Below are positions 1,992 through 52,698 of a stretch of 52,699 nucleotides of DNA, one piece after another. The stretch is from positions 1 through 52,699 of the forward strand of contig JAFSBX010000139.1 of the NCBI GenBank assembly GCA_017437065.1, given 5' to 3'. A model generated the notes under the pieces. It was not told where the DNA came from, searched no databases, and was given only the letters and a program-made list of their open reading frames with translations. The number at the start of each line of letters is the position of its first letter. Position 1 is the stretch's first letter. Origin of the DNA: Lachnospiraceae bacterium (GTDB lineage: Bacteria > Bacillota > Clostridia > Lachnospirales > Lachnospiraceae). The position numbers and the translations under genes are program-made.

Positions 1992-3200
1992 TTATTTCTG
2001 CTCTGCCTCTTCTACTGTTTTTGTTGTAAAGTCTTCCGGAGTAACTCCATTAAAATTTGCAGCAGGAGCAATCGTTCCATTTTTTATTAAATCATATGCT
2101 ACGTTCATTTTTTCTATTGTTTCCTTTGAGAGTTGGCATCTTTTCGGATCACTGACATAACCGGTAGAATCTGTGTCCGCATACAATATTACATTTCCAC
2201 CTTTAAAATCTCCGTCATTAATAGCATACAGTTGCTTTTCCACGTTCAGATGCATTATCTTAAGTACGCTGGTTAATACAATATTTTCTTTTCCGAAAAT
2301 ACCATCATCAAATTGATCTACGTCGCTACCGATAACTTTTACATCTTCAGCATATTTCACTGCCTCAAAAACTCCCTGTCCGGATTTTCCGGCAGCTACG
2401 AATAGGACATCGCATCCCTTTGCAATTAACGAATTGGCAAGTAATCTTCCGGTAAGTTCATCTGAAAAACTCCCTATGTAATTGCCGCCCACATCTGCCC
2501 CGGTCATATCTGTTCCTGCAAAAGCAGGCATTTCTACTACTGCTACTTGTTTTCCTTCGGTCTCATTTACATACTTTACACCGCACTCAAAACCATACTG
2601 ATAATTTACATTAGAAGGAAATGCAAAACCGTTTATGACAGCAACTTTTCCTGTTTTTGTTTCAAGGGCAGCTGCCATACCGGCAAAAAATCCGCTTTCC
2701 TGTTCGGCAAACTGCATGGCATAAACATTCTCCAATTCAATGTCGTTTCCTTCGGTATCTTTCAAAAAAGCATCCACCAAAATAAATTTTTTATCCGGAT
2801 TATTTTGTGCTGTTGCAGCAATACCTTCAAACTGATATCCACAACACACGATTACTTCATATTCTTCTACGATATCCGCGACCAGACGATTGGCAGTTTC
2901 TGTTTTTTCATCATTTCCCACAATCGATGTTACACTGCTACCGGGGCTTTTTTCAACATAAGCCAATACACCTTCATAAATATCCTGATTAAAGGAACCA
3001 TCATTTATGCCGGAAGGACCTGATACAATTGCTATTTTTAATGGAGCAAAGGTCTGTTCAATTGATGTTTCAACATTTTCTTTTGTTTTTGTTTCTGTAT
3101 TAGACATTGTTTCTGGCATTTTTTCGCCTGACGTATTTCCACATGCAGACAATGAAAACATTATTACAAATGCCATCATTAAAAGAATCATTTTTTTCAT
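1992..3200 (-). CDS. BMP-family substrate-binding lipoprotein
   Basis: 402-residue extracytoplasmic binding protein of the BMP/PnrA (basic membrane protein, Med) family, which typically captures nucleosides for an ABC importer. It has a lipoprotein signal, MKKMILLMMAFVIMFSLSAC, so Cys20 would be lipidated. The mature part shows the family pattern IAIVSGPSGINDGSFNQ and later DVLFVAAGKSGQG and VIGSDVDQFD. I chose the ATG at 3200, 6-7 bases behind AGGAAGAG, rather than the longer start at 3221, which overlaps the upstream stop. No ABC permease or ATPase genes are adjacent, so its partner is elsewhere or it is a sensor protein. Confidence 0.85.
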   Translation of the reverse strand: MKKMILLMMAFVIMFSLSACGNTSGEKMPETMSNTETKTKENVETSIEQTFAPLKIAIVSGPSGINDGSFNQDIYEGVLAYVEKSPGSSVTSIVGNDEKTETANRLVADIVEEYEVIVCCGYQFEGIAATAQNNPDKKFILVDAFLKDTEGNDIELENVYAMQFAEQESGFFAGMAAALETKTGKVAVINGFAFPSNVNYQYGFECGVKYVNETEGKQVAVVEMPAFAGTDMTGADVGGNYIGSFSDELTGRLLANSLIAKGCDVLFVAAGKSGQGVFEAVKYAEDVKVIGSDVDQFDDGIFGKENIVLTSVLKIMHLNVEKQLYAINDGDFKGGNVILYADTDSTGYVSDPKRCQLSKETIEKMNVAYDLIKNGTIAPAANFNGVTPEDFTTKTVEEAEQK

Positions 3201-3217
3201 TATGCTCTTCCTAACTA

Positions 3218-4096
3218 TCATCCCAAATTATCTACATGAACATCCATTTGCGGGTAAGGAATTTCAATCGCATTCTCATCAAGTGCATATTTTACGTTCT
3301 CTGTGATTCTCCATTTCCCTTCCCAATAATCTTCGTTTTTGAACCAACATCGAATGCCTAAAATCACAGAACTATCAGCCAGTTCATCTACATATACAAT
3401 TTGTTCCTTTTCCTTAACGATAAATGCATCTTTTTTCAATACTTCCATCAGAACATCTTTTGCTTTTCTTATATCCGCTTTATAGGAAATACCTACTTTA
3501 ATATCCAACCTTCTGTCCGGTGCAAAAGTAACATTGGTCAGGCTGCTATTAGCAAGATTTCCATTAGGTAATATAATAATTTTGTTTTCCGGAGTTGCCA
3601 GTCTTGTATAGAATAATTGAATTTCTTCTACTGTACCTTCATTTCCGTTTGTATCTTCTTTAATATAATCTCCTACTTTAAAAGGTTTTAAAAGTAAAAT
3701 CAATACGCCACCTGCCAAATTGGATAAACTGCCCTGAATTGCAAGACCAATTGCTACACCGGCCGAACCTAACAGTGCTACTACACTTGCTGCGTCAACA
3801 CCAAAGCCGGATGCAATAAAAAGCACTAAAATAATATAAAGTGCTGCCTTTATAAAAGAATCAAGAAACTGGATAACCCCCTGCTCAGCGTTACCGCGAA
3901 GCAGGGATTTTTTAACCATTTTCCGTACAATTTTAATAATTCTTGTACCTACCAAAAAAACAATTATCGCTAACAGTACTCTGATACCAAGCCGGAATAT
4001 TTTGTCAGGAAGTTCAGCAAAGAATTTTTCAATTAATCCGATATCTATTTCTTCTTCTGCAATTTCCGGAAGAGCTATATTTAATACATCTAACAC
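3218..4096 (-). CDS. Small-conductance mechanosensitive channel (MscS)
   Basis: 292-residue membrane channel that opens under membrane tension to release solutes during osmotic downshock. Hydrophobic segments lie at about 36-57, 82-102 and 105-130. The last is the pore helix with the Gly/Ala pattern GSAGVAIGLAIQGSLSNLAGG typical of MscS TM3, followed by the beta domain (KPFKVGDYI..GTVEEIQLFYT, then PNGNLANSSLTN). Start is a GTG at 4096 behind AGAGG. It lies upstream of the BMP lipoprotein on the same strand with 17 bases between, so the two are probably co-transcribed, though no functional link is known. Confidence 0.92.
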   Translation of the reverse strand: MLDVLNIALPEIAEEEIDIGLIEKFFAELPDKIFRLGIRVLLAIIVFLVGTRIIKIVRKMVKKSLLRGNAEQGVIQFLDSFIKAALYIILVLFIASGFGVDAASVVALLGSAGVAIGLAIQGSLSNLAGGVLILLLKPFKVGDYIKEDTNGNEGTVEEIQLFYTRLATPENKIIILPNGNLANSSLTNVTFAPDRRLDIKVGISYKADIRKAKDVLMEVLKKDAFIVKEKEQIVYVDELADSSVILGIRCWFKNEDYWEGKWRITENVKYALDENAIEIPYPQMDVHVDNLG

Positions 4097-4139
4097 GCTT
4101 TAACCTCTCTTATTCATATCTTAACTGCCAAGCTGATAC

Positions 4140-6593
4140 TTATTTTGCAACCTCTTTTTTTGTTTTTGCAGCAGTTGTTTTCGTTGCTTTTTGTACTGCT
4201 GTTTTATCTACTTTTTCAGTAGATGCTTTCGTATTTTTTGTGGCTGTTTTTTTGTCTTCTTTTATAGTTGTTTTCGCCACTTTTGCTGTTGTTACTTTCT
4301 CTGTTTTCGTACCAGTTGCTTTTGCTGTTTTTGTCGTTGTTTTTTTCGCAACGGTTTTCTTTTCCTTCACAGTCGGTTTTGAAGTTTCTACAGTCATTTT
4401 CTTATACTCAAAAATGCTGACTGATAAAGGAGCTGATTTTACAGTAAGAGAAAATGGCTTATTTTCATAGTCTTCTTCTTCTGTTAAAATGGCACGCTTA
4501 TTTACTCTGCCCTCTCCACCAAATTCTACTGCATCTGTATTCAGGACTTCTTTATAACTTCCTTCATACGGAACGCCAAGCTTAAATTCCTGTGCTACAT
4601 TGGCAAAGTTAGCTACTACAAGTAAGGTATCTTCTCTGTTTTGGCTTTTTCTCATATAAGCTACCATACACTGTTCAGATGCGATACAATTCAGCCACTC
4701 AAAACCTTTAGAAGAATGATCCCACTCATGCAAGGATGGATATTTTACATACAATTCATTTAATTTTTTAACCAGTTTGCGCATTCCTTCATGTTCAGGT
4801 GCATCCAGTATTTCCCATTTTACACTTCGGTTTTCATTCCATTCATCAAATTCTGCAATGTCCTGCCCCATAAATAAGAGCTTTTTCCCCGGATGAGTAA
4901 AGAAAAATCCGTACGCCGCTTTCAGATTATTAAACTTATCCTGTCTTTCCCCCGGCATTTTACCTATTAAAGTAGCTTTACCATGTACGACCTCATCATG
5001 AGACATTACCAACATGAATTTTTCACTATAATTATAAATCATACTAAAGGTAAGCTCGCCGTGATGATGTGCACGGAAATATGGATCGTAGGACATATAT
5101 CCGAGGAAATCATTCATCCATCCCATATTCCATTTTATGTCAAAACCAAGTCCATCGTCCTCTAAATCACCTGTAATCTTCGGCCATGCCGTAGACTCTT
5201 CCGCTATTGTTACTACACCTTGATTTCTTTTATGCATAATAGAATTCAAATGCTTAATAAACTCAATAGCCTCCAGGTTTTCATTGCCGCCATACATATT
5301 AGCAATCCATTCACCATCATTTTTTCCATAATCCAGATAGAGCATGGAAGCCACCGCGTCCATACGGATTCCGTCTGCATGGAACTGCTCTACCCAGTAA
5401 AGCGCATTGGCGATTAAATAATTAGATACTTCCGGTCTTCCGTAATTGTAAATCAATGTTCCCCAGTGCGGATGAGCACCTTTTCTTGGGTCTTTATGCT
5501 CATACAGGCATGTTCCGTCAAAATTGGAAAGTCCGTGTGTATCTCTAGGAAAATGTGCCGGTACCCAGTCTAAAATAACACCGATTCCTGCTTTATGAAG
5601 TTCATTCACTAAAAATCGGAAGTCTTCCGGTGTACCATATCTGGATGTAGGAGCATAATATCCAATTACCTGATATCCCCATGAACCATCAAAAGGATGT
5701 TCCATAATTGGCATAAGTTCTACGTGTGTATATCCCATTTCTTTGACATATTTAATCAAAGCAGGAGCAATATCTCTGTAATTGTCATAATCTTTTCCAT
5801 CCTCAGCTTTTTTGAAGGATCCAAGATAAAGCTCATAAATGCTCATCGGAGAAGTTACTGCGTCGAAATCTTTTCTTTTTTCCAACCAGTCATTATCTTC
5901 CCAAGGGAATTCTTCACCGGATGCAACTACGGAAGCAGTTTCCGGACGAAGCTGCTGTCTGAAAGCATAAGGATCCGCTTTCAAATAAGTCAGTCCGCCT
6001 TTCACTTTTATTTCAAATTTGTAGTTATCCCCTGGTTTTACTCCCGGAATAAAAATTTCAAAAATACCGGAATCCCATAATCTGCGCATCTGATGTGTTC
6101 TTCCATCCCAACCGTTAAAATCTCCCACAGTGCTGACTCTGAGTGCATTAGGCGCCCATACTGCAAAGCTGACACCTTCTGTTCCATCGATTGTCATTGG
6201 ATGAGCACCCAGCTTTTCATATACTGTATAATGGATTCCAGCCTGGAAACGTTCTGTATCCTGTCTCGTAATTTGTGGTTCAAAACGATATGCATCTCCA
6301 ACCTGTTTTACATTTCCTTCTTTATCCGTTACTTCATAAATATAATTTCCGATTTTCTTACCCGGTACTAAAGCGGCAAAATAACCTTCCTCATCTGCCA
6401 TGTCCATCTTTAGTTTCTGGCCAGATTCCTTTAATATAAGTGTTACTTTTTCTGCACCCGGCTGAAATGTTTGTACCACAGTATTATTTCCTGCTGTATG
6501 TGCACCCAAAAGAGTATGCGGATTATCTGATTCTGAAAAAACAATTTCTTCTATAGCCGGCCAGTTCATAAGTTTATAAAGCTTTTTATCCAT
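4140..6593 (-). CDS. glgB: 1,4-alpha-glucan branching enzyme with Lys/Thr-rich tail
   Basis: 817-residue GH13 branching enzyme that makes alpha-1,6 branches in glycogen. Order: CBM48-type N-terminal domain (about 120-215), GH13 barrel (about 250-590), and a C-terminal beta domain to about 730. Catalytic residues are visible: D412 in DGIRMDAVAS, E465 in TIAEESTAWP and D533 in SHDEVVHGK. Residues 735-817 are an extra low-complexity tail built of K, T, A, V and E (repeats such as KKTTTKTAKAT), absent from usual branching enzymes of about 630-730 residues. It lies downstream of the DUF1015 gene; no other glycogen genes are adjacent. Confidence 0.96.
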   Translation of the reverse strand: MDKKLYKLMNWPAIEEIVFSESDNPHTLLGAHTAGNNTVVQTFQPGAEKVTLILKESGQKLKMDMADEEGYFAALVPGKKIGNYIYEVTDKEGNVKQVGDAYRFEPQITRQDTERFQAGIHYTVYEKLGAHPMTIDGTEGVSFAVWAPNALRVSTVGDFNGWDGRTHQMRRLWDSGIFEIFIPGVKPGDNYKFEIKVKGGLTYLKADPYAFRQQLRPETASVVASGEEFPWEDNDWLEKRKDFDAVTSPMSIYELYLGSFKKAEDGKDYDNYRDIAPALIKYVKEMGYTHVELMPIMEHPFDGSWGYQVIGYYAPTSRYGTPEDFRFLVNELHKAGIGVILDWVPAHFPRDTHGLSNFDGTCLYEHKDPRKGAHPHWGTLIYNYGRPEVSNYLIANALYWVEQFHADGIRMDAVASMLYLDYGKNDGEWIANMYGGNENLEAIEFIKHLNSIMHKRNQGVVTIAEESTAWPKITGDLEDDGLGFDIKWNMGWMNDFLGYMSYDPYFRAHHHGELTFSMIYNYSEKFMLVMSHDEVVHGKATLIGKMPGERQDKFNNLKAAYGFFFTHPGKKLLFMGQDIAEFDEWNENRSVKWEILDAPEHEGMRKLVKKLNELYVKYPSLHEWDHSSKGFEWLNCIASEQCMVAYMRKSQNREDTLLVVANFANVAQEFKLGVPYEGSYKEVLNTDAVEFGGEGRVNKRAILTEEEDYENKPFSLTVKSAPLSVSIFEYKKMTVETSKPTVKEKKTVAKKTTTKTAKATGTKTEKVTTAKVAKTTIKEDKKTATKNTKASTEKVDKTAVQKATKTTAAKTKKEVAK

Positions 6594-6638
6594 TCCATTT
6601 TCCTCTCAAAACGTTATTTTTTATCTTTTTGCATTTGT

Positions 6639-7871
6639 TTAAAATTTATGTATAAATAATCCGCTTCTGAGTTTTGGCTCAAACCATGTAGATTTAGGCG
6701 GCATTAAAAGCCCTGCATCTGCCACGGCAAAAAGCTCGCTGATATCTGTAGGATACATTGCAAATGCGACTCCACCAAACTTCTCAGCACGTTTTTCTAA
6801 TTCTTTTAATCCACGGATACCACCTACAAATTCGATACGATTATCCGTTTTCGGATCCTCAATTGCTAAAATCGGATGTAATACTTTTGTCTGTAAAATG
6901 GATACGTCTAATGCTTCTACCGGATTTTCACTTATTTCTCCGGTATACACCAGCTGATACCATTTTTTATCCAAAAACATGCCGATTTTTCCTTTTTGTT
7001 CCGGTTTATATGGTTCTACTCCCATTTCCGTTACTTCAAAATCATTCTTCAGAGTTTCTAAAAACTGTTCAGCAGTATGTTCGTTTAAATCCTTTACTAC
7101 ACGATTATAATCCATAATCATTAGTTCTTTGTCAGGAAATAGTACCGAAAGAAAATAGTTATACTCTTCATTACCTGTATGTGTAGTGTTTTCTTCTTTT
7201 CTCTTCCAAGCTACCTTTACTGCGGAAGCACATCTGTGATGACCGTCTGCAATATAAATACTGTCCATACCTGCAAAGCTGTTTGTTATTGTATTTATTT
7301 TATCTTCTTCTGAAATAATCCAAACTTTATGTGCAATTCCATCAGTTGATATAAAATCATATTCCGGACTTTTTTGTTTTACTTCTTCCGTAAGTTTTTC
7401 GATTTCGTCCTGATAACGGTAAGCTAAAAAAATCGGTCCTGTCTGTGCACTGCATGCATCTACATGGCGAATGCGGTCTTCTTCTTTATCCGCTCTTGTA
7501 TTTTCGTGTTTTTTAATTATCTGATTTCGGTAATCCTCTGCACTGGCACATGCCACAATTCCGGTCTGACTACGTCCATCCATAATCTGTTCATACAAAT
7601 AATAGCAAGGTTTGTCATCCTGTATGAAATATCCTTCTTTTATCATGTTTTCAAGAAGTTCCGCTGCCTTCTCATAAACACAATCATCGTAAGTGCCTAC
7701 ACTGGATGGAAAATTTGTTTCTGCTCTGTCAATTTTCAAAAAAGAAAGAGATTCCTTTTTGACTTCTTCTGCCGCTTCATTCCTGTCATACACATCATAA
7801 GGCAGTGCTGCAATCCTGCCTTCCAACCCACATTTAGGGCGATATGCCTGAAATGGTTTAATTTCTGCCAT
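6639..7871 (-). CDS. DUF1015-family protein, possible serine-metabolism enzyme
   Basis: 410-residue protein of the DUF1015 family (COG4198), of uncertain biochemical role. Key segments are the N-terminal AEIKPFQAYRP, KHENTRADKEEDRIRH, and IADGHHRCASAVK (DGHHR at 209-213). The last resembles the DGxxRxxA motif of the ParB/sulfiredoxin fold, which includes the free serine kinases SbnI and SerK. In many Clostridia this family sits beside serA/serC, and here those genes are 1-3 kb upstream on the same strand. Start ATG 7871 is behind GGAGAG; a longer start at 7898 lacks a ribosome site. A serine-linked kinase role is my inference only. Confidence 0.85.
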   Translation of the reverse strand: MAEIKPFQAYRPKCGLEGRIAALPYDVYDRNEAAEEVKKESLSFLKIDRAETNFPSSVGTYDDCVYEKAAELLENMIKEGYFIQDDKPCYYLYEQIMDGRSQTGIVACASAEDYRNQIIKKHENTRADKEEDRIRHVDACSAQTGPIFLAYRYQDEIEKLTEEVKQKSPEYDFISTDGIAHKVWIISEEDKINTITNSFAGMDSIYIADGHHRCASAVKVAWKRKEENTTHTGNEEYNYFLSVLFPDKELMIMDYNRVVKDLNEHTAEQFLETLKNDFEVTEMGVEPYKPEQKGKIGMFLDKKWYQLVYTGEISENPVEALDVSILQTKVLHPILAIEDPKTDNRIEFVGGIRGLKELEKRAEKFGGVAFAMYPTDISELFAVADAGLLMPPKSTWFEPKLRSGLFIHKF

Positions 7872-36870: not shown

Positions 36871-37518
36871 ATGTGGAATTATGAAAAAAGATTACAGTTT
36901 CCGGTAAAAATTAAGGAACCTAATGCTAAACTTGCACAAGTGATTATTAGCCAGTTCGGAGGTCCGGACGGTGAGCTTGCTGCTTCTATGAGGTATATTT
37001 CCCAAAGATATACGATGCCTTATAATGAGGTGGCAGGATTGCTTACGGATATTGGGACTGAAGAACTTGCGCATATGGAAATGGTCTCCTCTATTGTCTA
37101 TCAGCTTACAAAAAATCTTTCTATGGAAGAAATCGAACGTAGCGGATTTGATAAATACTATGTAGACCACACACTTGCACTTTGGCCTCAGGCAGCAGGC
37201 GGTACACCATTTAATGCATGCGTATTTCAGTCAAAGGGGGATCCGATTACGGACTTATTTGAGGATATGGCAGCAGAACAAAAAGCACGGTCAACTTATG
37301 ACAATATTTTACGTTTAGTACACGACTCAGATGTATGTGAACCTATTCGTTTCCTGCGTGCAAGAGAAATCGTACACTTCCAGCGATTCGGTGAAGCGAA
37401 TGTTACTGATTTAAGTAGATTTGAAGCAAAGGCACCGGTCATGCCGACCGATACCTTTGCTTTATTAATTTCTATAGTAGAACGGTTATTCCTGCAACAT
37501 ATCCAAATACATATCTAA
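36871..37518 (+). CDS. cotJC: Spore coat CotJC, manganese-catalase family, altered C terminus
   Basis: 215-residue protein of the CotJC/manganese catalase family. Residues 1-175 follow the family closely (QFGGPDGELAASMRYISQRY, DIGTEELAHMEMV with metal-ligand Glu and His, AAEQKARSTYDNILRL, REIVHFQRFGEA). After FGEA (about residue 175) the sequence (NVTDLSRFEAKAPVMP...) no longer resembles the usual short CotJC tail, crosses a terminator-like hairpin (37424-37462) and overlaps the Fic gene end. The native 3-prime end seems lost at a junction with accessory DNA. The four-helix metal core should survive. Confidence 0.85.
   Translation: MWNYEKRLQFPVKIKEPNAKLAQVIISQFGGPDGELAASMRYISQRYTMPYNEVAGLLTDIGTEELAHMEMVSSIVYQLTKNLSMEEIERSGFDKYYVDHTLALWPQAAGGTPFNACVFQSKGDPITDLFEDMAAEQKARSTYDNILRLVHDSDVCEPIRFLRAREIVHFQRFGEANVTDLSRFEAKAPVMPTDTFALLISIVERLFLQHIQIHI
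37424..37462. terminator. Hairpin at the cotJC / fic convergence
   Basis: AAGCAAAGGCACCGGTC (37424-37440) and GACCGATACCTTTGCTT (37446-37462) pair with two mismatches on the plus strand. On the minus strand those positions become U-G wobbles, giving a continuous stem, so it probably evolved as the fic terminator. It lies inside the cotJC frame. Confidence 0.65.
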
Positions 37519-38379
37519 TCTTGCATTGATGTATCCTGCAAACAGATTTTCCATTGCCGAAAGATTATGTTTCACATGATACTCATCAAATGCATTGTAG
37601 TAGGCAATTCTATCTGCAAACTTAATATCGATAGGTGGATATCCTGCCTTCATCAATTCAAGATTCACAAGCAGTCTTCCGGTTCTGCCATTACCATCAA
37701 TGAAAGGATGGATGCCCTCAAACTCAATATGAAAACGAGCCAGTTTTGTTACAATATGCGAACTGCTTTCAGCAAAATCATGTAATAGCTGTTCCATCTT
37801 AGGTTCAATAAGATACGGCTGCACAGGTTCATGTTGTGCGCCCATAATACGAACGGGAACTCTGCGGTATGCACCACGATCCTCTTTCTTATCCGCAAGG
37901 ACAAGGTAATGAATCTGCTTGATGATGCTTTCACTAAGTGGAACATTATCTTTCACAAGTTCGCTCACAAAATCAAATGCATCTTTATGACCGACTGCCT
38001 CCATATGGTCTTTTAACGGTTTTTGGTCAATTGTAAGACCTCGAAGTACCAAATCTGTTTCTCGCAGGGTAAGTGTATTTCCTTCAATAGCGTTAGAGTT
38101 GTATGTGTATTCCACGATAAACTCCTCGTTTAGCCTTTCCACTTCGCCCGCCGTCAAAGGTCTTCTTCCGTCCAGCTCTACCTTTTTGCGGTCGATTTGC
38201 AGCAACAGACTTTCCTTCGATTTATAACGACCATCTGCTGGTTTCTTTGCATCCACAGGAATTTTCCACCCGCGTCCTTCCTGGTACGCACCCGGAATTT
38301 TCCCTTCTGAGCAAAGAACTCGGATTCTTCTATCAGAAATGCCCCATTTTTCAGAAGCCTGTTTTACTGTCATGAACAT
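37486..38379 (-). CDS. Fic-domain protein with N-terminal DNA-binding domain
   Basis: 297-residue Fic enzyme, expected to transfer AMP (or a related group) to a target protein. The N-terminal about 45 residues form a MerR-like helix-turn-helix (VKQASEKWGISDRRIRVLCS). The Fic core carries the intact motif HPFIDGNGRTGR (224-235). An inhibitory motif SNAIEG (95-100) of the (S/T)xxxE(G/N) type precedes it, so activity is probably self-restrained. Start ATG 38379 is behind GGAGG. Three repeats upstream may be its own operators. First gene right of the cotJC junction; target unknown. Confidence 0.9.
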   Translation of the reverse strand: MFMTVKQASEKWGISDRRIRVLCSEGKIPGAYQEGRGWKIPVDAKKPADGRYKSKESLLLQIDRKKVELDGRRPLTAGEVERLNEEFIVEYTYNSNAIEGNTLTLRETDLVLRGLTIDQKPLKDHMEAVGHKDAFDFVSELVKDNVPLSESIIKQIHYLVLADKKEDRGAYRRVPVRIMGAQHEPVQPYLIEPKMEQLLHDFAESSSHIVTKLARFHIEFEGIHPFIDGNGRTGRLLVNLELMKAGYPPIDIKFADRIAYYNAFDEYHVKHNLSAMENLFAGYINARLDMYLDMLQE

Positions 38380-38487: not shown

Positions 38488-38520
38488 AAAAAGGCACCTG
38501 CATAGTTACATGGTGCCTTT
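38488..38520 (-). terminator. Strong minus-strand terminator
   Basis: On the minus strand AAAGGCACC (38520-38512) pairs perfectly with GGTGCCTTT (38498-38490), then a T run. It stops transcription from the caspase-FRG side, and of the candidate RNA at 38488-38774, before fic. Confidence 0.85.
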
Positions 38521-38861: not shown

Positions 38862-39725
38862 TTAAAGCAAATGTCTCGATATGCCTCTATCTTCTTTCGG
38901 AGTCATTTCCCATTTATTCTTACATTTCTCCAACAATTCTTTTAACTTTCTTTCATTAAATTCCTTCAAGCTTTTTGATATTTCATCTTTTTCATCTTCA
39001 TCTACATATATAGAATCATGAGTAATCCCAAAGCATTTCATATATACTTCCAGTTCATCTGCCACCTTGCTAGGTATTATGATTTTAATTAGTGTTTCTT
39101 CATCCACATTATAATGTTCCAGTGGCCATACCAAGTTCCCATGAACCATAAAATTGCCTGATTGACGGCACATTCTTTTATCATATTTTTTTCCATAAAT
39201 TGCCAAAGGAATAAGATTTGAAATTTTTATAATTTCATCCGAAGTAAATATTTTTTTACATCCACTTGCCATTTCATTCCATCTCTTTGGTTCAAGCAAA
39301 AAAACAGAACAATCAGAATCTTTCTTACGACCATCACAAGCAAAAAATAGCGCCACGGAAAAATCTGTAGTCCAATCCATCATAGGAGTCCAAACACCAT
39401 AATGTTGAGCCAAACAATATAAGTCAACTATATTCAAGGACGTATCATATGTTATATTATTTTTATTTAATTCTTTTAAAAATGAAGCTAAATATATCTT
39501 ATGCAATAACAATATTTTATCACCGCGGTTATTAAACTCTTTCAATTTTCTTGGTTCAACAGGTCTATCAAATTGATCAGCAATCACATAAAGATTTCTA
39601 TATGCGCTCGGATTTAAAATATAATTAGAATCTGCATGTCCTCTAAACCAATAATTATTTTCCGAATTAGTGTCTTTTACAAACGCTAGCAGTTCTTGTA
39701 AGCTATCTATCTTATGTATTTTCAT
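38862..39725 (-). CDS. FRG-domain protein
   Basis: 287-residue protein with an N-terminal FRG domain, named for its Phe-Arg-Gly motif: YWFRGHADSNYILNPSAYR (F27-R28-G29), then CLAQHYGVWTPMMDWTTDFS and VALFFAC. The C-terminal third is charged and helical (ISKSLKEFNERKLKELLEK). FRG domains recur in accessory and defence loci; their biochemistry is not settled as far as I know. It lies 77 bases downstream of a caspase-like protease gene on the same strand, so the two likely form an operon. No signal or membrane segment, so it should be cytosolic. Confidence 0.85.
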   Translation of the reverse strand: MKIHKIDSLQELLAFVKDTNSENNYWFRGHADSNYILNPSAYRNLYVIADQFDRPVEPRKLKEFNNRGDKILLLHKIYLASFLKELNKNNITYDTSLNIVDLYCLAQHYGVWTPMMDWTTDFSVALFFACDGRKKDSDCSVFLLEPKRWNEMASGCKKIFTSDEIIKISNLIPLAIYGKKYDKRMCRQSGNFMVHGNLVWPLEHYNVDEETLIKIIIPSKVADELEVYMKCFGITHDSIYVDEDEKDEISKSLKEFNERKLKELLEKCKNKWEMTPKEDRGISRHLL

Positions 39726-39802
39726 TTCATTATGTCCTAAAATTATTTTCCGTTTAAAATAAATACTTTATTTAATCATTCACACTTTCTAAATTAAAAT
39801 AT

Positions 39803-40987
39803 TTAAGAACGTAGATTTATCTCAAAAAAATCATTTGTATATGTCGGAATAGAATTTAGGAAATAATTCATATCTTCTAAAAACACTTTTTGTACACTAT
39901 ATGGTATTGTAATTCCCTCGCCATTTTCAAACATTGCACTATAATAATATAGATTATTTAATGTCTTTTCCCATCCGTAATACAAATATCCCATTTTTTT
40001 CAATTCCTTACATACCATATATACACAATTTTGAGAAGGATTAAATCCGTCTTCACCACTTCCTATAACAATACACTTTTCTATTATAGCAGAAGAAATC
40101 TGAAAACGCAGCTCAGACAAAGCCTCTTCTATTTTTTCTCGAAACGAAAATACTTGATGTTTTTCCTGTTCTGTTTTAATATCCTCATCATCAACAATAG
40201 CATATATAATATTCTTCCCCTCAAATAGGCACGTTGGATGTTGCTTAATCTGTGAGTTACTCATGCTAACCAAATTTGACTGTTCCTCTATATATTTATA
40301 CAGAGACGCAAAAGTCAAGAAATTGCCATCTAATGCTCTTGCTTGTCCTTTCAAAGCATCTAACAAAAAAGAAGTAAATACACTAATTTCTTGGTTGTTA
40401 AAACAGTCTAGCGAATATTCTCCTTCTGTGCATGAAAAAATTACTCCCATTCCTTTCGCCATTTTCAAATACTTTAGCACATAATTATCAGATTGAACCT
40501 GCAATCCTTTCTTGTTTCCAACTCTTTCACAACAAGCATCAATTAGAACTGTAATACTTCCACGATCACCGGAATATAGTTCCTTTAAACTCTCTAATAA
40601 CTCTTTTAATGATATCATTGTTTCAGCGTTCTTCTCCGAGTCAGATACAAAAAAATAAAATTCTCCATCTATCGTACATCCATGACCACTGTAATAGAAA
40701 ATAATATTTTTATCTTTTTTGAACTGCCCTTTTCTTTCATGTAACATATCTAAAATTGCTTTTTTACTGGTCTTTGCTTCATCATCGGAAATGAGTAGGC
40801 AACTATCCGTTGACATTGCCAAAAAATTTGACTTTGCGAAAACATTGTGCACTAATGTTGCATCTTGTTCACAATTATCTAGGCAATCCTGATTTTGAAG
40901 ATATTTATTAATCCCAACTGCAAAAAGACAATTTTCTCCAATTGCTTTTTGTTTCTTTTCTTTTTTTATTCTTTCTGCTTTCGTCAT
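39803..40987 (-). CDS. Caspase-like (clan CD, C14) protease
   Basis: 394-residue protein with an N-terminal caspase fold: CLFAVGINKYLQNQ (first strand), the catalytic His in FYYSGHGCTIDGEFYF (H102) and the catalytic Cys in VLIDACCERVG (C152). The fold ends near 255; the remaining about 140 residues (helical, then YMVCKELKKMGYLYYGWEKT) are a domain I do not recognise. Start ATG 40987 has only a weak AGAGA site. Bacterial caspase-like proteases often act in suicidal defence. The FRG gene follows directly and may be sensor, effector or substrate. Confidence 0.85.
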   Translation of the reverse strand: MTKAERIKKEKKQKAIGENCLFAVGINKYLQNQDCLDNCEQDATLVHNVFAKSNFLAMSTDSCLLISDDEAKTSKKAILDMLHERKGQFKKDKNIIFYYSGHGCTIDGEFYFFVSDSEKNAETMISLKELLESLKELYSGDRGSITVLIDACCERVGNKKGLQVQSDNYVLKYLKMAKGMGVIFSCTEGEYSLDCFNNQEISVFTSFLLDALKGQARALDGNFLTFASLYKYIEEQSNLVSMSNSQIKQHPTCLFEGKNIIYAIVDDEDIKTEQEKHQVFSFREKIEEALSELRFQISSAIIEKCIVIGSGEDGFNPSQNCVYMVCKELKKMGYLYYGWEKTLNNLYYYSAMFENGEGITIPYSVQKVFLEDMNYFLNSIPTYTNDFFEINLRS

Positions 40988-41112: not shown

Positions 41113-41469
41113 CTACACTACTTTAAACATTTTCTGTAATACCGCTTTTGCATCGTTTTTCTTTTCAATCTCTGCTCGTGCTTTGCTAAACTCCTCCATT
41201 CATCCCAGTTCTTCCTCATCACCAAAGCTGATATGCGTGTATACACTCATCGTAACACTGATATCCGAATATCCCATGAGGTACTGCAATGTTTTTGGAT
41301 TCATTCCCGATTTTGCCATATTGTAACAATAAGTATGGCGGCACACATGCGGAGTGATATTGGGCATCTGTACTCACTAAATATCATTGTCCTTGCCAAT
41401 CATACTCTTGAGCTTACGCTGTCAGTGCATTACTCTTCTAATGGATTGCCATTTTCATCAAACAAAATC
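41113..41469 (-). pseudogene. Tyrosine integrase C-terminal relic 1
   Basis: Decayed end of a Tn916-type tyrosine recombinase. Reading the minus strand: ILFDENGNPL, then stops and shifts, then MPNITPHVCRHTYC, AKSGMNPKTLQYLMG, SDISVTMSVYTHISFGDEEE, an in-frame stop, and MEEFSKARAEIEKK. The catalytic Arg-His (CRH) and the Tyr (SVYTH) are recognisable, but the usual LGH is LMGY, several stops interrupt it and the N-terminal two-thirds are missing. It lies between the AAA ATPase gene and the caspase gene. It cannot be active. Confidence 0.85.
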
Positions 41470-41475
41470 ACTAAT

Positions 41476-42699
41476 CTATATCATCCAAATCGGCACAATA
41501 TAATTATCTCTATCAATTGCACTCAATCCCGGTTTCATACAAATCACTGCCCCCTTAGAACGCGGTGTTGATGCTCTATCCAACAAATCAAACACCTTAA
41601 TAAGCTCTGCCCCCGGATTAGAAGTCTTCTTTATTTCAATTGGATTAAGTACTCCATCATGCTCTAATACAATATCGATTTCTTTTGCATCCTTGTCACG
41701 ATAATAGTACATAAATGGTTCCTTACCACTGCATAGATATGTTTTCATTATCTCAGCAACCACATAGTTCTCTAATATAGCACCATTCATTGCGCCACAT
41801 TCCAAAGTCTCTGCACTGCTCCACTTTGTCAAATAACAAACCAATCCTGTATCATAAAAATACAATTTCGGTGTCTTTACAAGTCTCTTTAAGAGATTAT
41901 TAGAATACGGATGCAAATAAAATATGATGCCCAACGTTTCCAATATTCCTAACCAGTCTTTTGCCTGTTTTTGGTTAATATCTGCATCTCTGGCAATATC
42001 TGCGACATTCAGCATTTGACCGCACCTTGCGGCTACTGCAGTGATAAAATGCAAAAATTTTAGTGAATCTATAGCATCTGATAATTCTTTTACATCTCTC
42101 TCAATATAAGTGGATAAATAACTACTATAAAATATCTGACTATTACTATTTCGGCCACTTACAATAGCCGGCATAGAACCTCTATATATTCGTTCAAAAA
42201 CACCTCTCGTATCAACCTGTTTTCTTTCTTTACCTCTCCTAGATAATGCATCCAAATCAATTGTAAATGATTCCATTTCTCCATTACAGAGTTCTGCCTG
42301 AGATAATGACGTTAACGAAAGCACTGCAACTCTTCCGGCTAAAGACTCCTGTACCCCACGCATCAACTTAAACACCTGTGAACCGGTAAGCCAAAATGCT
42401 CCCGGCTCATGATTCCTGTCTACATGTATTTTTATATAATTAAATAATTCCGGTGCATACTGAACCTCATCAATCAATACTGGTGTCTTATGCAACTGTA
42501 AAAACAACTCAGGATCCGTCTTCGCAAGATTTCGCTCGTTCAAATCATCTAACGATACATAACTTCTATCTGTACCTTCCATTAGCTTCTGAAGCATTGT
42601 GGTCTTTCCTACCTGTCTGGGTCCGGTTACCAATACAACTGGATATTCTTTTGTCACCGTTGAAACTACTTTTTCCAAATTTCTTGATATATAGTTCAT
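41476..42699 (-). CDS. AAA-type ATPase, DUF4143 family
   Basis: 407-residue P-loop ATPase. Walker A GPRQVGKTTM (26-35), Walker B TPVLIDEVQYAPELF, sensor WLTGSQVFKLM, and a C-terminal DUF4143-type nuclease-like part with YYYRDKDAKEIDIVLEHDG, whose Asp/Glu pattern resembles PD-(D/E)XK. This is a common accessory family of unclear role; some members are tied to mobile elements. Start ATG 42699 is behind AGGAGG. Four TTAGCCGAAAA motifs sit just upstream. It is flanked on both sides by integrase relics. Confidence 0.9.
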   Translation of the reverse strand: MNYISRNLEKVVSTVTKEYPVVLVTGPRQVGKTTMLQKLMEGTDRSYVSLDDLNERNLAKTDPELFLQLHKTPVLIDEVQYAPELFNYIKIHVDRNHEPGAFWLTGSQVFKLMRGVQESLAGRVAVLSLTSLSQAELCNGEMESFTIDLDALSRRGKERKQVDTRGVFERIYRGSMPAIVSGRNSNSQIFYSSYLSTYIERDVKELSDAIDSLKFLHFITAVAARCGQMLNVADIARDADINQKQAKDWLGILETLGIIFYLHPYSNNLLKRLVKTPKLYFYDTGLVCYLTKWSSAETLECGAMNGAILENYVVAEIMKTYLCSGKEPFMYYYRDKDAKEIDIVLEHDGVLNPIEIKKTSNPGAELIKVFDLLDRASTPRSKGAVICMKPGLSAIDRDNYIVPIWMI

Positions 42700-43108: not shown

Positions 43109-44638
43109 TCATATATTCCATATTATCTTAGTACTCCCATCCTCACTTATAACAATCTTATCTATCATAATCATAGCAACTGCTTTTTTCCTGTTATAAT
43201 CAGCCGATTTCCATGATTTAGCCAAATTTACAACAATATCTTTTTCATCATCTCTGCTCTTTATTTCTTCTATTCTTTCATATAATGCCAGTCTGTCTCT
43301 TTTAAGCTGTGTAGCTTTCTGGTTTGCAAGCATCAGCAAATCATCATTAAAACCACCAGCCAGCATAGTATCCAAAAGTTGCTTTTCTGACTTTTCAATT
43401 GCTTTAATTTTCAGCTTCAAATCATTGATTTCGGCAGTATTACTTGTTTCAGTTTTATGTTTTGTCCCCTTCAAATCCAACAATTTCTCAGCAATGCAGT
43501 CATAAACCATGTTCTCCAAATCCTCAGCATATATAGATACTTTCGGTCCTGTACAAATTTTCTTATGTGACTTTCCGGTACAGTTGAAATACCGCCGCAT
43601 TTCACCATCTTTATTGATTTTACCTTTAATGGTAGTCATTGTGTGTCCGCATTTTTCACAAATTAACTTGCCGGACAGCCAACTGGTACGATTACTGACA
43701 CTATTCCCTATTTGCTTATTCTTCTCCAACTTTCTCTGGCATTTAAGCCAGATATCCGAATCTACTACTCCAGTATGAGTCAAAATCACCAGTTTCATAT
43801 CAGACCAATCCGGATCGTCAGGATTATGTTTGGTACGTCCATATAGCTGTGCCCCGTATTCTCCTGTAAACATTGACACATCTGTTATCATCTGCACCCC
43901 ATGCCTGTCATAATAATCATATACATCTGAATCCGCCTTAACATAAATAGGGTTCCTTAACAAATTGGAAAGCTTTGCTGTAGACCAATTACTTCCATTC
44001 AATGGCTTTTTATTTTCAGCAATCAAAATATCTAATAATCGTCTTAGCGAAACACTTTCCTGTGCGTAAACCTCAAATATGTATCGTATTTGTTCAACTT
44101 CTGATGGTATAGGATTTAACTTTTTAGTCTTTATATTATGAATAACGGTCGGTACAAGCTCAAACCCATAAGGCTGCCTGCCTCCCATATAAAACCCCAT
44201 TTCGCTCCGATGAGCATAAGCCTGAGTTACACGATTAATAGTGGATGTTCTCTCAAACTCTGCAAATACCATCAGAATTTTAACAATCAACTCTCCATAA
44301 GGGGAGGATGTGTCAAAGGATTCCTGCGAAGAAACAAACTCAACTTTATGCTCTTTGAATTCCTGCAAAATATTTACAAAGTCCGAAAGCGAACGACTGA
44401 TTCGGTCAAGTTTATAAACAATTACTTTACTGATTTTATTTTGCCGGACAAGCTTCATCATCTTCTGAAAACCATCACGATTAATATTCCCACCGGAAAA
44501 ACCATTGTCTATAAATGTCAAAATCTTTTCATTCCGTTCATCCAGTTTAAGAACTGACTTACAATATTCTATTTGAGTTTCGCAGCTGATGCTGTTTTCG
44601 CGTTCTACTGATTTTCTCGCATATAGAACAATTGCCAT
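43109..44638 (-). CDS. Large serine recombinase (integrase)
   Basis: 509-residue site-specific recombinase. The N-terminal resolvase domain (about 1-145) has the catalytic Ser10 in YARKSVERENS, plus GFSGGNINRDGFQ and KLDRISRSLSDF. A recombinase domain follows (about 165-270), then a zinc ribbon (CEKCGHTMTT..YFNCTGKSHKKIC) and a coiled coil (about 380-460). Complete and apparently intact. It would insert and excise the element to its right. Start ATG 44638 is behind GGGAGG. Confidence 0.95.
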   Translation of the reverse strand: MAIVLYARKSVERENSISCETQIEYCKSVLKLDERNEKILTFIDNGFSGGNINRDGFQKMMKLVRQNKISKVIVYKLDRISRSLSDFVNILQEFKEHKVEFVSSQESFDTSSPYGELIVKILMVFAEFERTSTINRVTQAYAHRSEMGFYMGGRQPYGFELVPTVIHNIKTKKLNPIPSEVEQIRYIFEVYAQESVSLRRLLDILIAENKKPLNGSNWSTAKLSNLLRNPIYVKADSDVYDYYDRHGVQMITDVSMFTGEYGAQLYGRTKHNPDDPDWSDMKLVILTHTGVVDSDIWLKCQRKLEKNKQIGNSVSNRTSWLSGKLICEKCGHTMTTIKGKINKDGEMRRYFNCTGKSHKKICTGPKVSIYAEDLENMVYDCIAEKLLDLKGTKHKTETSNTAEINDLKLKIKAIEKSEKQLLDTMLAGGFNDDLLMLANQKATQLKRDRLALYERIEEIKSRDDEKDIVVNLAKSWKSADYNRKKAVAMIMIDKIVISEDGSTKIIWNI

Positions 44639-47713: not shown

Positions 47714-49522
47714 TTAAACTAATTTAAATTCCTGCATAATACATTTATTACTTTTATAATCAAAAAATAACTCAAAAGAAACCTCCAGCCTCTCCTTACC
47801 ACTTGCATCAAAAACTTCAATGTCTTTCAGTTCCAATGTAGACTCCTGAGTCTGTATCACATAGTTTATCATCGCAATTAAACTCTGATATATATCTTCT
47901 ATTTCAGGAGGAAATAAAAATATATAACGAATTATATACCATTCATCTACATACTCAAATCCTTTATCCTTTAAATAGCTCGTTAACCGTTTGACTGCCG
48001 AAATCTGTTTTCTTGTTGTAATCAATCCATCATCCAATTTCGACAGATAAAATTCATGTACTTTTCTCATTTCATCCAAATTAGATTGCGTCAAAATTTT
48101 CAGCAATATATTATCACAAACTTGCTCTAATGCTCTTGTCTTCGTTCTCACATCAGCTCTTCCGATATTGGCATACCAACGGTCTGTAACTTTTCGCACC
48201 CAATAACATTGCAAAGCATCAAGCACATGCTTATCATTTTTTAACCCTCCTTGAACTTGGGGCATATGTTTCATATATTTTTGCCATCCATGAAAAGAAT
48301 AGTTAAAAGTCTCGTTTTTATCGTCCAGTATAATGGCTTGCAAAACAGATACTATTTGTAACTCATTAGCTATATCTTCTTTACTAAGCATTGGTTTTGC
48401 ACGAGCACAAAACTCTATCCATTTATGTACCTTTCCTTTACTCTTTCGTATTCTTCTGACTTCCTCCTTACTTACTTCAGGTTTTAAATATACATATTTA
48501 GATATTCTTAACGCATCCTCTTCTATAAATCGCTCAACATTTTCGATATCAATGAGTTTGTAATGAAGATTTTTCATTTCTTCTACAAGTTCTGGTGATA
48601 TTTTGAAATCGTACTCTTTTTGGATATTATTTAATTTAATTATATCCTGTATATTTCCAATATACTCATACTGTGTCATTTTCAAATATAACGTTTCAAT
48701 TGGAGAATATGTATATTGAAGAATATTATTTACTTTAACTCTCTCCGAATCAGTTAACAGTAAACGTATAGTTTCCTCAAAATCATAATCGTATCCCTTT
48801 TCATACAAAAAATCCATTAGAAGATATGCATTTTCCATAATTTCATCCCACTTCAATACAATTTGGGCTACTCCCCCTTTAATTTCTTCTTTTACAGGTA
48901 AAAACAGTTCTTTTTCAAGCGAATCTTTAATAAACTTAATAACCATCCCATTGTATGTTTTCATTCCTATGAATGAATTATCTATATTCTCCATTGATGG
49001 CTTATTAAGCAACATTAAAACATTCGTATCAGGGAAATAATAGTGTTCCAACATATAGAAAAAATATAAAATTTTACATCTCTCACGTTTACATCGTATA
49101 TTATCCTTATCAAATAATTCTAAATCAACACAAAGACTTGTTCTTAAACGTTCAATTAATCCCTTTTTTCTATAAAATTTATTAACAAATTCCTCAGCCT
49201 CTGCTTCTATATCGTTTTTAAAAGCTAAATTCAATATAGTAATAATCTCTTTTGCTACCTCTACGTCTTCACATTCATTATCATCAAACTCATAAGCACT
49301 ACCCATATCATATTTACTCTCATAGGTATCAAATACTTCTTGCCGAGTCAACAGAAAGCGCTCAATGAACTCTTCCAATGATATACTAATACCACCGACT
49401 CCCCATATTTTTGTATTTTTAATCTTCTTATAGTTGTCTGATTCTTTGTAATTATAATCGCAAATATCAACCCCGTTAGATTGTAAAAAAACTCTTATTG
49501 ACTCCCTAAAAAGTTCAAACAT
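47714..49522 (-). CDS. Large unrecognised protein, 602 residues
   Basis: 602-residue, mostly helical, soluble protein that I cannot assign. No P-loop, zinc or nuclease motif is obvious. Features: acidic stretch near 90-110 (EFDDNECEDVEVAKEI), Cys/Arg patch (IRCKRERCKILYFFYMLEHY), basic segment (RRIRKSKGKVHKWIEFCARA) and a C-terminal beta-like end. It has no strong ribosome site (start ATG 49522) and ends at a solid terminator, so it is its own unit. Position between the toxin-antitoxin pair and the FtsK gene fits a cargo or defence gene of the element. Confidence 0.75.
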   Translation of the reverse strand: MFELFRESIRVFLQSNGVDICDYNYKESDNYKKIKNTKIWGVGGISISLEEFIERFLLTRQEVFDTYESKYDMGSAYEFDDNECEDVEVAKEIITILNLAFKNDIEAEAEEFVNKFYRKKGLIERLRTSLCVDLELFDKDNIRCKRERCKILYFFYMLEHYYFPDTNVLMLLNKPSMENIDNSFIGMKTYNGMVIKFIKDSLEKELFLPVKEEIKGGVAQIVLKWDEIMENAYLLMDFLYEKGYDYDFEETIRLLLTDSERVKVNNILQYTYSPIETLYLKMTQYEYIGNIQDIIKLNNIQKEYDFKISPELVEEMKNLHYKLIDIENVERFIEEDALRISKYVYLKPEVSKEEVRRIRKSKGKVHKWIEFCARAKPMLSKEDIANELQIVSVLQAIILDDKNETFNYSFHGWQKYMKHMPQVQGGLKNDKHVLDALQCYWVRKVTDRWYANIGRADVRTKTRALEQVCDNILLKILTQSNLDEMRKVHEFYLSKLDDGLITTRKQISAVKRLTSYLKDKGFEYVDEWYIIRYIFLFPPEIEDIYQSLIAMINYVIQTQESTLELKDIEVFDASGKERLEVSFELFFDYKSNKCIMQEFKLV

Positions 49523-51564: not shown

Positions 51565-52698
51565 TTAATCATTCTCAAACTCATATTTTTTCATCTCTGC
51601 CTGTTTTAATGGAAAATTGGAAAACAAGTTGACAGTGCAGTTGTACCTCAGTAACCTTGCTCTGCCTACTGCCTGTTCCAGTTCGCTTTCAATCATCCAG
51701 AAATGAAATTTTCTCAAAACATCTTGTTCTTCACTATAAGTAGTAAAAGTAAAAATATACCCATTATGAGAAACCATACAAGATTTCATTTTAGCATTCT
51801 CATCTATATTTAATCCCAATGAAAACGGAAACAATTTATATAAGAAATCCACTTGATATGGTGTACCAACTACATCAATATTCTGCCCTTTTAAATAATC
51901 ACACCCTATAGCATTTCCAAAATACATATCTCCGATCGAATATTTTTTAAATGTTATCATGTGTTCAAATCCAGACCAATCAGATATCCTTTTCAAAATA
52001 CTGGTATCCTCATCTATACAATGTCTGCTCATAGGCTTATCATAGTATTGATTAAGTGTACCCATATAATTTGCCTGTTTACATTCATAAAATTTTACGT
52101 TTTGCTTTCCAAAACAATACTCACAAATGTCCTTATCAACAGTTGCTGATACCATGATATGTTTTATGTCCTTAAATTTATATGGCTTCAAAAAAACTAT
52201 GCTATCTTCCGAAAGATTCTTTTCTTCGGAAGCATTTCTATACACAAAATATTCCGCCAAGCAAAATGACGGTATATCAGTAAGGGCTAATATACCGTCA
52301 ACATTATCTTTTTCATATTCAATATTATTATCATCTTCTCCGCTATCCCACTCAAAACCGGATAGTTTAAACAATGTATTACGTTTTATCATTTGAAATA
52401 ATTTCTTGATTTTTTTTGCTACTAAGCTGTATGTTCCTTTCATTACACCGTATTTTATCACTTCTTTCTCAACTTTTTTCAAGACTTTTTTTAGAACAGA
52501 AATTGGTATTTCACATTGATTCGGAATGATACTACTAAGAATGATATCCTCGTCTATTATTATAACATCATACTTATTTAATGTTTTTTTATCCATATTC
52601 AAAAACTTCCGATGAGTAGTAATTGTATTTCCTCTATATTTTTCAAATTCCTTTTGTTTCTTTAGATACTGTTCAAGGCAGACCACATTCTCTTCCCC
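51565..52698 (-). CDS. DEAD/DEAH-like helicase, C-terminal part
   Basis: At least 377 codons, open to the right edge, so the N-terminal part with the Walker A motif lies outside. Visible helicase motifs: DVIIIDEDIILSS (motif II-like, DED rather than DEAH), IMVSATVDKDICEY (motif III, SAT) and ESELEQAVGRARLLR (motif VI). A short insert rich in Glu/Asp/Asn (DSGEDDNNIEYEKDNVDG) sits in the middle. Probably a superfamily 2 helicase for element replication, with the replication-like gene downstream on the same strand. Confidence 0.65.
   Translation of the reverse strand, partial: GEENVVCLEQYLKKQKEFEKYRGNTITTHRKFLNMDKKTLNKYDVIIIDEDIILSSIIPNQCEIPISVLKKVLKKVEKEVIKYGVMKGTYSLVAKKIKKLFQMIKRNTLFKLSGFEWDSGEDDNNIEYEKDNVDGILALTDIPSFCLAEYFVYRNASEEKNLSEDSIVFLKPYKFKDIKHIMVSATVDKDICEYCFGKQNVKFYECKQANYMGTLNQYYDKPMSRHCIDEDTSILKRISDWSGFEHMITFKKYSIGDMYFGNAIGCDYLKGQNIDVVGTPYQVDFLYKLFPFSLGLNIDENAKMKSCMVSHNGYIFTFTTYSEEQDVLRKFHFWMIESELEQAVGRARLLRYNCTVNLFSNFPLKQAEMKKYEFEND

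What the first reader, a model, noticed from the sequence alone, without database searches (positions are those of the whole stretch)
38862..40987. Two-gene caspase-like protease plus FRG-domain operon, candidate defence module
Seen: an intact caspase fold with catalytic H102 and C152 and an unrecognised C-terminal domain, followed 77 bases later on the same strand by an FRG-domain protein, inside an accessory island with recombinase relics. Known: bacterial caspase-like proteases take part in suicidal anti-phage defence, and FRG domains recur in accessory loci. I am not aware of a described caspase-FRG pair. Inference: FRG and the caspase C-terminal domain supply sensing or killing.
Basis: partly seen in the sequence, partly recalled or inferred. 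Interest (0 to 1): 0.75.

Follow-up and report, generated by a model that had tools for sequence, protein, structure and literature searches.

The report
Caspase and FRG gene pair
Two neighbouring genes on a bacterial mobile element, a protein-cutting caspase-like enzyme and an FRG-domain protein, look like anti-virus cargo, but the pairing turned up nowhere else that was searched, so a joint system remains a hypothesis.

Summary
Window 39803-40987(-) encodes a 394-aa caspase-domain protein with H102 and C152; 38862-39725(-) encodes a full-length FRG protein 77 bases downstream. They lie in an integrated mobile element that splits cotJC at about 37397. Its four cargo genes, before an intact serine-recombinase ORF, all match PADLOC defence or defence-candidate models.

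A recurrent caspase-FRG module is not supported: 0 of 131 distinct other caspase ORFs had FRG within 200 bp on the same strand, and 0 of 108 FRG-bearing loci from two surveys had a caspase nearby. These surveys reach distant relatives only: no close relative of this caspase was found, and its C-terminal 139 residues match nothing convincing.

The five caspases scoring best against it sit beside a small TIR gene, the arrangement of type IV Thoeris. Here FRG stands in that place. FRG is assigned in print to the NAD+-using ART superfamily; I could not test that fold. The boldest reading is a Thoeris-like circuit with FRG as signal maker. Against it, the tree puts this caspase outside the TIR-linked clade and its C-terminus is unlike theirs. 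Two independent defence genes side by side are nearly as likely.

The parts
36871..37397 (+). cotJC (Mn-catalase-like spore coat gene), 5' part; homology to relatives stops at 37394-37397, where the element begins
   Evidence: PF05067 164 bits; blastn ends at 37394-37397 in six relative loci; sequence following cotJC in a same-genus genome is on G000:C108
37387..37397 (.). junction core TTCGGTGAAGC, present (as GCTTCACCGAA) at the other junction on contig C108: putative attachment-site core
   Evidence: printed junction sequences, compared by eye
37486..38379 (-). Fic protein with N-terminal HTH, first cargo gene
   Evidence: PF02661 74.5 bits; PADLOC PDC-S04 134.5 bits, SoFic 100.2 bits
38488..38520 (-). 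terminator-like hairpin with a short U run, downstream of the FRG gene
   Evidence: 61-nt fold -19.7 kcal/mol, z -3.57, 0 of 200 shuffles as good; not among the three sites listed by the terminator scan
38862..39725 (-). FRG-domain protein, 287 aa; R28, G29, R43, F82, H108, T113, D117, F128, R184, Q188, F192 shared with all relatives aligned
   Evidence: PF08867 63.1 bits; PADLOC PDC-S15 113.3 bits; alignments; AlphaFold2 model pLDDT 81.7, pTM 0.80
39726..39802 (-). 77-base intergenic gap; AGGA 9 bases before the FRG start codon; no terminator-like site listed in it
   Evidence: sequence, scan, gap length
39806..40222 (-). caspase protein residues 256-394, orphan C-terminal region
   Evidence: no convincing relative; model pLDDT 30-62 by blocks of ten
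40223..40924 (-). caspase (C14) catalytic domain, about residues 22-255; H102 (40682-40684), C152 (40532-40534)
   Evidence: PF00656 61.8 bits; H102, D150 and C152 same in all sequences aligned; model pLDDT mostly 70-92, but 50-56 at residues 151-170 and 31-34 beyond 240
39803..40987 (-). caspase-like protease ORF, 394 aa
41038..41066 (-). promoter-like site TGGAAA-17-TATAAT upstream of the caspase gene (weak: 26 such sites found in the stretch, mean 17.0 in shuffles)
41115..41373 (-). relic of a tyrosine recombinase C-terminus
   Evidence: three-frame translation, identification by eye
41476..42699 (-). AAA_14/DUF4143 ATPase, cargo gene
   Evidence: PF13635 159 bits, PF13173 100 bits; PADLOC PDC-S01 372 bits
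43109..44638 (-). large serine recombinase of the element, intact ORF
   Evidence: PF00239, PF07508, PF13408; phrog_95 integrase 323.8 bits

Best explanation
The two genes form one transcription unit carried as cargo at the end of an integrated mobile element, and most likely protect the host (and so the element) by abortive infection. Shown: gene identities, caspase catalytic residues, conserved FRG residues, 77-base gap, shared low G+C, a terminator-like hairpin after FRG, element borders, defence-candidate neighbours. Inferred: co-transcription, defence, and joint action. Mechanism I commit to: infection switches on the FRG protein, a NAD+-using enzyme of the ADP-ribosyltransferase (ART) superfamily; its product, or its modification of a target, is read by the orphan C-terminal region and turns on the caspase, which cuts cell proteins and stops the infected cell. 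The coupling between the two is the least certain step.
For: Same strand, 77-base gap, no terminator-like site listed between, a stable terminator-like hairpin after FRG. GC3 0.240 (FRG) and 0.243 (caspase) are the two lowest of 36 genes measured, and their G+C (0.306, 0.315) is unlike the flanking Fic (0.417) and ATPase (0.373) genes. All four cargo genes match PADLOC models. By single-sequence search the five best-scoring relatives of the caspase are TIR-adjacent, an arrangement in which a TIR-made NAD+ derivative activates a caspase (type IV Thoeris, passages of PMC12847820). FRG is placed in the ART superfamily and named as a signal-generating or NADase domain in PMC9503650 (passages).
Against: 0 of 131 distinct other caspase ORFs have FRG within 200 bp; no caspase near FRG in 79 viral and 29 order-level FRG loci. 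The sixth and seventh best caspase relatives have no TIR beside them. The tree places this caspase outside the TIR-linked clade, split support 91/97, on a branch of 2.58 changes per column. Its C-terminus scores worse than most of its own shuffles against theirs. Low G+C is shared with two genes of the element itself (47714-49522, 0.304; 51565-52686, 0.306), so composition argues only weakly for joint arrival. ART fold of FRG untested: no ART Pfam hit among 23 members and the fold search never ran. FRG genes elsewhere stand without a caspase.
Confidence: 0.4

Rival explanations
1. Two independent single-gene defence (or toxin-like) genes that happen to be neighbours in the cargo zone of a mobile element. 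The caspase and FRG each act alone, as Fic and the DUF4143 ATPase beside them may.
For: No other caspase-FRG neighbour pair among 131 caspase ORFs or the FRG loci examined. The two flanking cargo genes match single-gene candidates too (PDC-S04/SoFic, PDC-S01), and FRG itself matches PDC-S15. FRG genes elsewhere stand alone or beside unrelated partners, e.g. an AAA ATPase-like plus RloB-like gene in L107 and DUF262-like genes in L222 and L223 (names by eye).
Against: Tight 77-base spacing, no terminator-like site between, very similar composition. The caspase is an orphan, so absence of the pair among distant relatives is weak evidence.
Confidence: 0.36
2. Protease-activated effector pair: the caspase responds to infection and cuts the FRG protein (or a partner) to release its NAD+-using activity. 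The FRG protein is the killer.
For: Gene order and spacing. A nuclease activated by a trypsin-like protease partner is described in PMC12799240 (listing and abstract start only). The FRG C-terminus beyond residue 240 is longer than in most relatives aligned and its last 16 residues are poorly modelled, a possible cleavable tail.
Against: No cleavage site identified; no such pair elsewhere.
Confidence: 0.1
3. Not defence: mobile-element housekeeping, decaying cargo or another regulatory role.
For: Neighbouring recombinase relic. The caspase is very divergent, without detected close relatives.
Against: Both ORFs are intact with catalytic or conserved residues kept; the other cargo genes are defence candidates.
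Confidence: 0.14

Closest known systems
Type IV Thoeris (TIR plus caspase-like protease; Rousset et al. 2025, read only as cited in passages of PMC12847820 and PMC13373217)
   Same: Caspase-domain protease with catalytic His-Cys beside a gene of a NAD+-linked superfamily; the five best-scoring single-sequence relatives are TIR-adjacent.
   Different: No TIR gene, FRG instead; caspase outside the TIR-linked clade; C-terminal region unlike theirs; the caspase lies upstream of its partner, whereas the TIR gene is upstream of the caspase in most TIR-adjacent loci seen.
PDC-S15, FRG single-gene phage-defence candidates (PADLOC)
   Same: FRG protein matches PDLC04938 at 113.3 bits. PMC12482510 (passages) calls such candidates still uncharacterised.
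   Different: Here immediately downstream of a caspase gene; longer charged C-terminal tail than most relatives aligned.
PADLOC 'caspase' model PDLC02987
   Same: Catalytic domain matches, 36.1 bits over residues 24-154.
   Different: Only positions 8-127 of a 453-position model match.
NCBIfam NF047832 caspase, EACC1-associated type
   Same: Caspase-domain similarity, 54 bits.
   Different: Far below the curated cut-off of 140 bits; not a member.
Metacaspases and MALT1 paracaspase (solved structures)
   Same: The 36-row caspase alignment A4 matches metacaspase-1 (E 8.1e-12) and MALT1 (E 4.5e-10).
   Different: The profile is dominated by TIR-linked caspases; the window protein alone matched no solved chain at E up to 1.

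Membership tests
Peptidase C14 (caspase-like) | Score above the Pfam cut-off over the domain | tested here: met
   61.8 bits against 21.4, profile positions 7-223 of 233
Peptidase C14 (caspase-like) | Catalytic His-Gly and Asp-x-Cys motifs | tested here: met
   H102-G103, D150 and C152 align with the same residues in 12 and 35 other caspases
Peptidase C14 (caspase-like) | Proteolytic activity | not testable with these tools
   needs a protein assay
Type IV Thoeris | Adjacent TIR-domain gene | tested here: not met
   The genes scanned on either side carry Fic, FRG, AAA_14/DUF4143 and recombinase families, no TIR; ORFs under about 110 aa were not scanned
Type IV Thoeris | Caspase in the same clade as TIR-linked caspases | tested here: not met
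   outside the clade, split support 91/97; long branches make its exact place unsure
Type IV Thoeris | Same C-terminal region as TIR-linked caspases | tested here: not met
   best score -4.1 bits; 1546 of 1617 scored shuffles (of 2000 made) as high or higher; hhalign probability 0.24%
Type IV Thoeris | Activation by an ADP-ribose-type signal | not testable with these tools
   needs biochemistry
FRG family (PF08867 / PDC-S15) | Score above the Pfam cut-off and shared invariant residues | tested here: met
   63.1 bits against 25; shares the 11 columns that are invariant in 20 aligned FRG proteins, itself one of them
ART superfamily (FRG clade) | ADP-ribosyltransferase fold | not tested
   model made but no fold search ran; literature assignment only; no ART Pfam hit among 23 members
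Caspase-FRG module as a recurrent system | The two genes adjacent in several independent genomes | tested here: not met
   0 of 131 distinct other caspase ORFs with FRG within 200 bp on the same strand

The most novel reading that the evidence does not exclude
A NAD+-signalling suicide circuit in which an FRG (ART-superfamily) enzyme, not a TIR, makes the ADP-ribose-type messenger, and the orphan C-terminal region of the neighbouring caspase is its receptor: the logic of type IV Thoeris reached with a different signal enzyme and a different sensor.
Probability: 0.13. Interest if true: 0.82.

Novelty: new variant of a known kind. Interest (0 to 1): 0.4.

Why it matters
FRG proteins are common in this order (57 of 392 genomes searched) and occur in viral contigs (121 relatives). 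In the held library eight papers hold the phrase 'FRG domain'; I read one of them, PMC9503650, in passages, and the titles and abstract starts of the other seven do not announce a tested mechanism. A genetic partner with a readable output, protein cleavage, would give a direct assay for what FRG does. If the pair acts together it would show that caspase effectors can be wired to NAD+ enzymes other than TIR. If not, the locus is still a compact example of four defence-candidate genes loaded beside the attachment site of a mobile element.

Tried and rejected
Type IV Thoeris membership: rejected on missing TIR, tree position and unlike C-terminus. A MAFFT alignment had suggested a shared C-terminal A...T pattern; the shuffle test did not bear it out.

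Close relatives of the caspase: none in genome contigs by its own peptides (182 pattern matches, 0 confirmed), in viral contigs (48 matches, 0 confirmed) or in phages. In 72,556 plasmid records 6 had distant matches, of which 5 were fetched. In the same family 2 of the 249 genomes other than the window's own matched weakly. The wider genome-contig scan used one motif that the window caspase itself lacks, so its 80 kept loci (of 266 confirmed) over-represent the TIR-linked clade.

C-terminal region alone: the order-level search gave 4 marginal hits at E 0.0016-0.0052 per genome in 392 genomes, treated as chance; none in plasmids at E up to 1; five PDB matches at E 0.27-0.96. A DUF2067 match (17 bits, cut-off 24.9) was not believed.

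Genome-level co-occurrence: 5 of 15 other caspase genomes also have FRG, against 51 of 376 without caspase, Fisher p 0.049 (counts), but never on the same contig; more likely both follow defence-rich genomes.

Structure: the FRG model is good; the caspase C-terminus is not. No fold search ran, so the ART fold stays untested.

Rows dropped: in the tree every second TIR-type caspase from L139-L218 was left out, as were the duplicate loci L089-L138 and rows covering under 70% of the core model (77 rows kept; one search was the same script, which crashed). In one search four loci had no caspase ORF recognised (L104, L106, L137, L138), seven ORFs had a shorter flank under 500 bases, and one stop-interrupted gene (L100) counts as two ORFs. 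An earlier count with a 400-base limit gave TIR adjacent in 87 of 128 loci.

Full report
WHAT IS THERE. The upstream gene, 39803-40987(-), encodes a 394-aa protein with a caspase domain (PF00656, 61.8 bits, cut-off 21.4). H102 and C152 fall in columns that are the same in all 13 and all 36 caspases aligned, the window protein included. The downstream gene, 38862-39725(-), encodes a 287-aa FRG protein (63.1 bits, cut-off 25) that shares the 11 residues invariant in 20 aligned FRG proteins, itself one of them, and matches PADLOC's PDC-S15 models (best 113.3 bits). The gap is 77 bases, with no terminator-like site listed in it. A hairpin with a short U run at 38488-38520 lies after FRG; the 61-nt stretch folds at -19.7 kcal/mol, z -3.57, 0 of 200 shuffles as stable. 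The simple terminator scan did not list this hairpin. A promoter-like site precedes the caspase gene, but 26 such sites were found where shuffles give 17.0 on average.

COMPOSITION. FRG and caspase have G+C 0.306 and 0.315 and GC3 0.240 and 0.243. These are the two lowest GC3 values of the 36 genes measured, and the G+C differs from the flanking Fic (0.417) and ATPase (0.373) genes. Two genes of the element itself are as low in G+C (0.304 at 47714-49522, 0.306 at 51565-52686; GC3 0.260 and 0.281). Composition therefore fits joint arrival but only weakly, and does not show joint action.

SETTING. cotJC homology stops at 37394-37397 in the six relative loci compared, of nine held. The sequence that follows cotJC in a same-genus genome (G031) is found on another contig of the window's own genome, C108, ending at base 31229. 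Both junctions share an 11-base core (by eye). So an element sits in cotJC; it is at least about 34 kb (15.3 kb in the window plus 18.6 kb on C108) if both contigs are element to their ends. Between the junction and an intact serine-recombinase ORF (43109-44638) lie four cargo genes: Fic, FRG, caspase and an AAA_14/DUF4143 ATPase. All four match PADLOC models (PDC-S04/SoFic, PDC-S15, caspase, PDC-S01). Of the other element proteins, five in the window and three on C108 were scanned against PADLOC, without a match. These are models of known or candidate systems; a match is not a test of function.

IS THE PAIR SEEN ELSEWHERE? In 392 genomes of the order, 16 have a caspase and 57 an FRG domain. 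Six have both, and only the window's own genome has them on one contig. I fetched flanks for the caspases found at family, order and phylum level, for 5 of 6 plasmid records and for 80 genome-contig loci. Among 131 distinct other caspase ORFs, 0 had FRG within 200 bp on the same strand; 2 had an FRG gene somewhere in the stretch, 2.8 kb (L083) and 2.3 kb (L175) away. From the other side, 79 viral FRG loci (of 80 kept from 121 relatives) and 29 order-level FRG loci had no caspase-domain ORF; the order-level stretches reach only about 1.5 kb either side. The pair is a singleton in what I could search. Limits: no close relative of this caspase was found, so the surveys cover distant relatives only, and one search was steered by a motif the window protein lacks.

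WHAT THE RELATIVES SAY. By single-sequence search, the five best-scoring relatives are caspases of about 315-325 aa beside a small TIR gene; the sixth and seventh (L086, L073) have no TIR beside them. A TIR gene lies within 200 bp in 86 of 131 ORFs: 71 of 80 in the motif-steered set, 4 of 5 on plasmids, 11 of 46 in the less biased family, order and phylum sets. TIR plus caspase is the arrangement of type IV Thoeris, in which a TIR product, N7-cADPR, activates a protease that degrades cellular proteins; I read this in passages of PMC12847820, which cites Rousset et al. 2025, not in the original. A maximum-likelihood tree of 77 catalytic domains puts the window protein outside that clade (split 91/97), on a branch of 2.58, near a few long-branched caspases (93/90); the program warns that such joins may be false. 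Its C-terminal residues do not resemble the C-terminus of the TIR-linked proteins. By these tests it is not a type IV Thoeris caspase. Whether it works like one is open.

FRG. PMC9503650 (passages) places Frg in the ART superfamily, lists it among NAD+-processing signal generators and says it might act as a NADase. The AlphaFold2 model is good (pLDDT 81.7, pTM 0.80), but the fold comparison could not be run, the best solved chains by sequence are at E 0.09 or worse, and no ART Pfam family matches any of 23 members. The ART claim is thus from print, not from my data.

CASPASE STRUCTURE. The catalytic domain is modelled mostly at pLDDT 70-92, but only 50-56 at residues 151-170, which include the catalytic Cys, and 31-34 at 241-260; the C-terminus stays at 30-62. 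No function can be read from the C-terminus.

HOW IT LIKELY WORKS. I favour a co-transcribed two-gene abortive-infection unit (0.40): FRG turned on by infection, the caspase as protein-cutting executioner, the orphan C-terminus as receiver. The coupling is inferred. Two independent defence genes side by side is almost as likely (0.36), given that the pair is a singleton. A protease-activated FRG effector (0.10) and no defence role (0.14) remain.

LITERATURE. 'FRG domain' plus 'caspase' gave 0 papers, 'FRG domain' plus 'antiphage' 1, 'FRG domain' alone 8; no title or abstract start among the eight describes a caspase-FRG pair. PMC12482510 (passages) calls the PADLOC candidates PDC-S15 and PDC-S66 still uncharacterised. 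The library lacks most subscription papers, including Burroughs and Aravind 2020, which PMC9503650 cites for Frg.

VERDICT. Observation confirmed; defence setting supported; recurrent caspase-FRG module not supported. Novelty: a caspase gene directly beside FRG was not found elsewhere, so I file it as a possible new variant of the known caspase-effector kind, with the caution that joint function is unshown.

Noticed in passing
window 37387-37397 and L312 about 3230 (G000:C108 31229): A mobile element has inserted in cotJC, a spore coat gene, with an 11-base core shared by both junctions. Its two ends lie on two contigs. Precise excision might restore cotJC, as known for other sporulation-gene insertions (recalled).
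   Followed up: partly
window 37486-38379: Fic protein with N-terminal HTH and a sequence SNAIEG resembling the S-x-x-x-E-G inhibitory motif of Fic proteins (motif from recall); matches PADLOC SoFic and PDC-S04.
   Followed up: partly
window 41476-42699: AAA_14/DUF4143 ATPase, a near full-length match to PADLOC PDC-S01 (372 bits), next to the pair.
   Followed up: no
L073/L131 (G701): Caspase with a large C-terminal region outside the caspase domain that has no Pfam match at E up to 0.01 and an upstream gene that looks like a membrane protein by eye: possibly another uncharacterised caspase system.
   Followed up: no
L132 (G607), 2769-6769: A caspase gene 1.4 kb downstream of a protein whose start resembles DUF4062, the TIR-like NADase family of PMC13174449 (abstract start seen); identification by eye.
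   Followed up: no
L107 (G539), 4558-7766: The best-scoring FRG relative (125.9 bits) lies 62 bp downstream of a gene resembling RloB, itself next to an AAA ATPase-like gene, a possible three-gene defence operon (names by eye).
   Followed up: no
L222 and L223: FRG genes in two viral contigs are each followed 2 bases later by a gene resembling DUF262, a possible recurrent FRG partner (name by eye).
   Followed up: no
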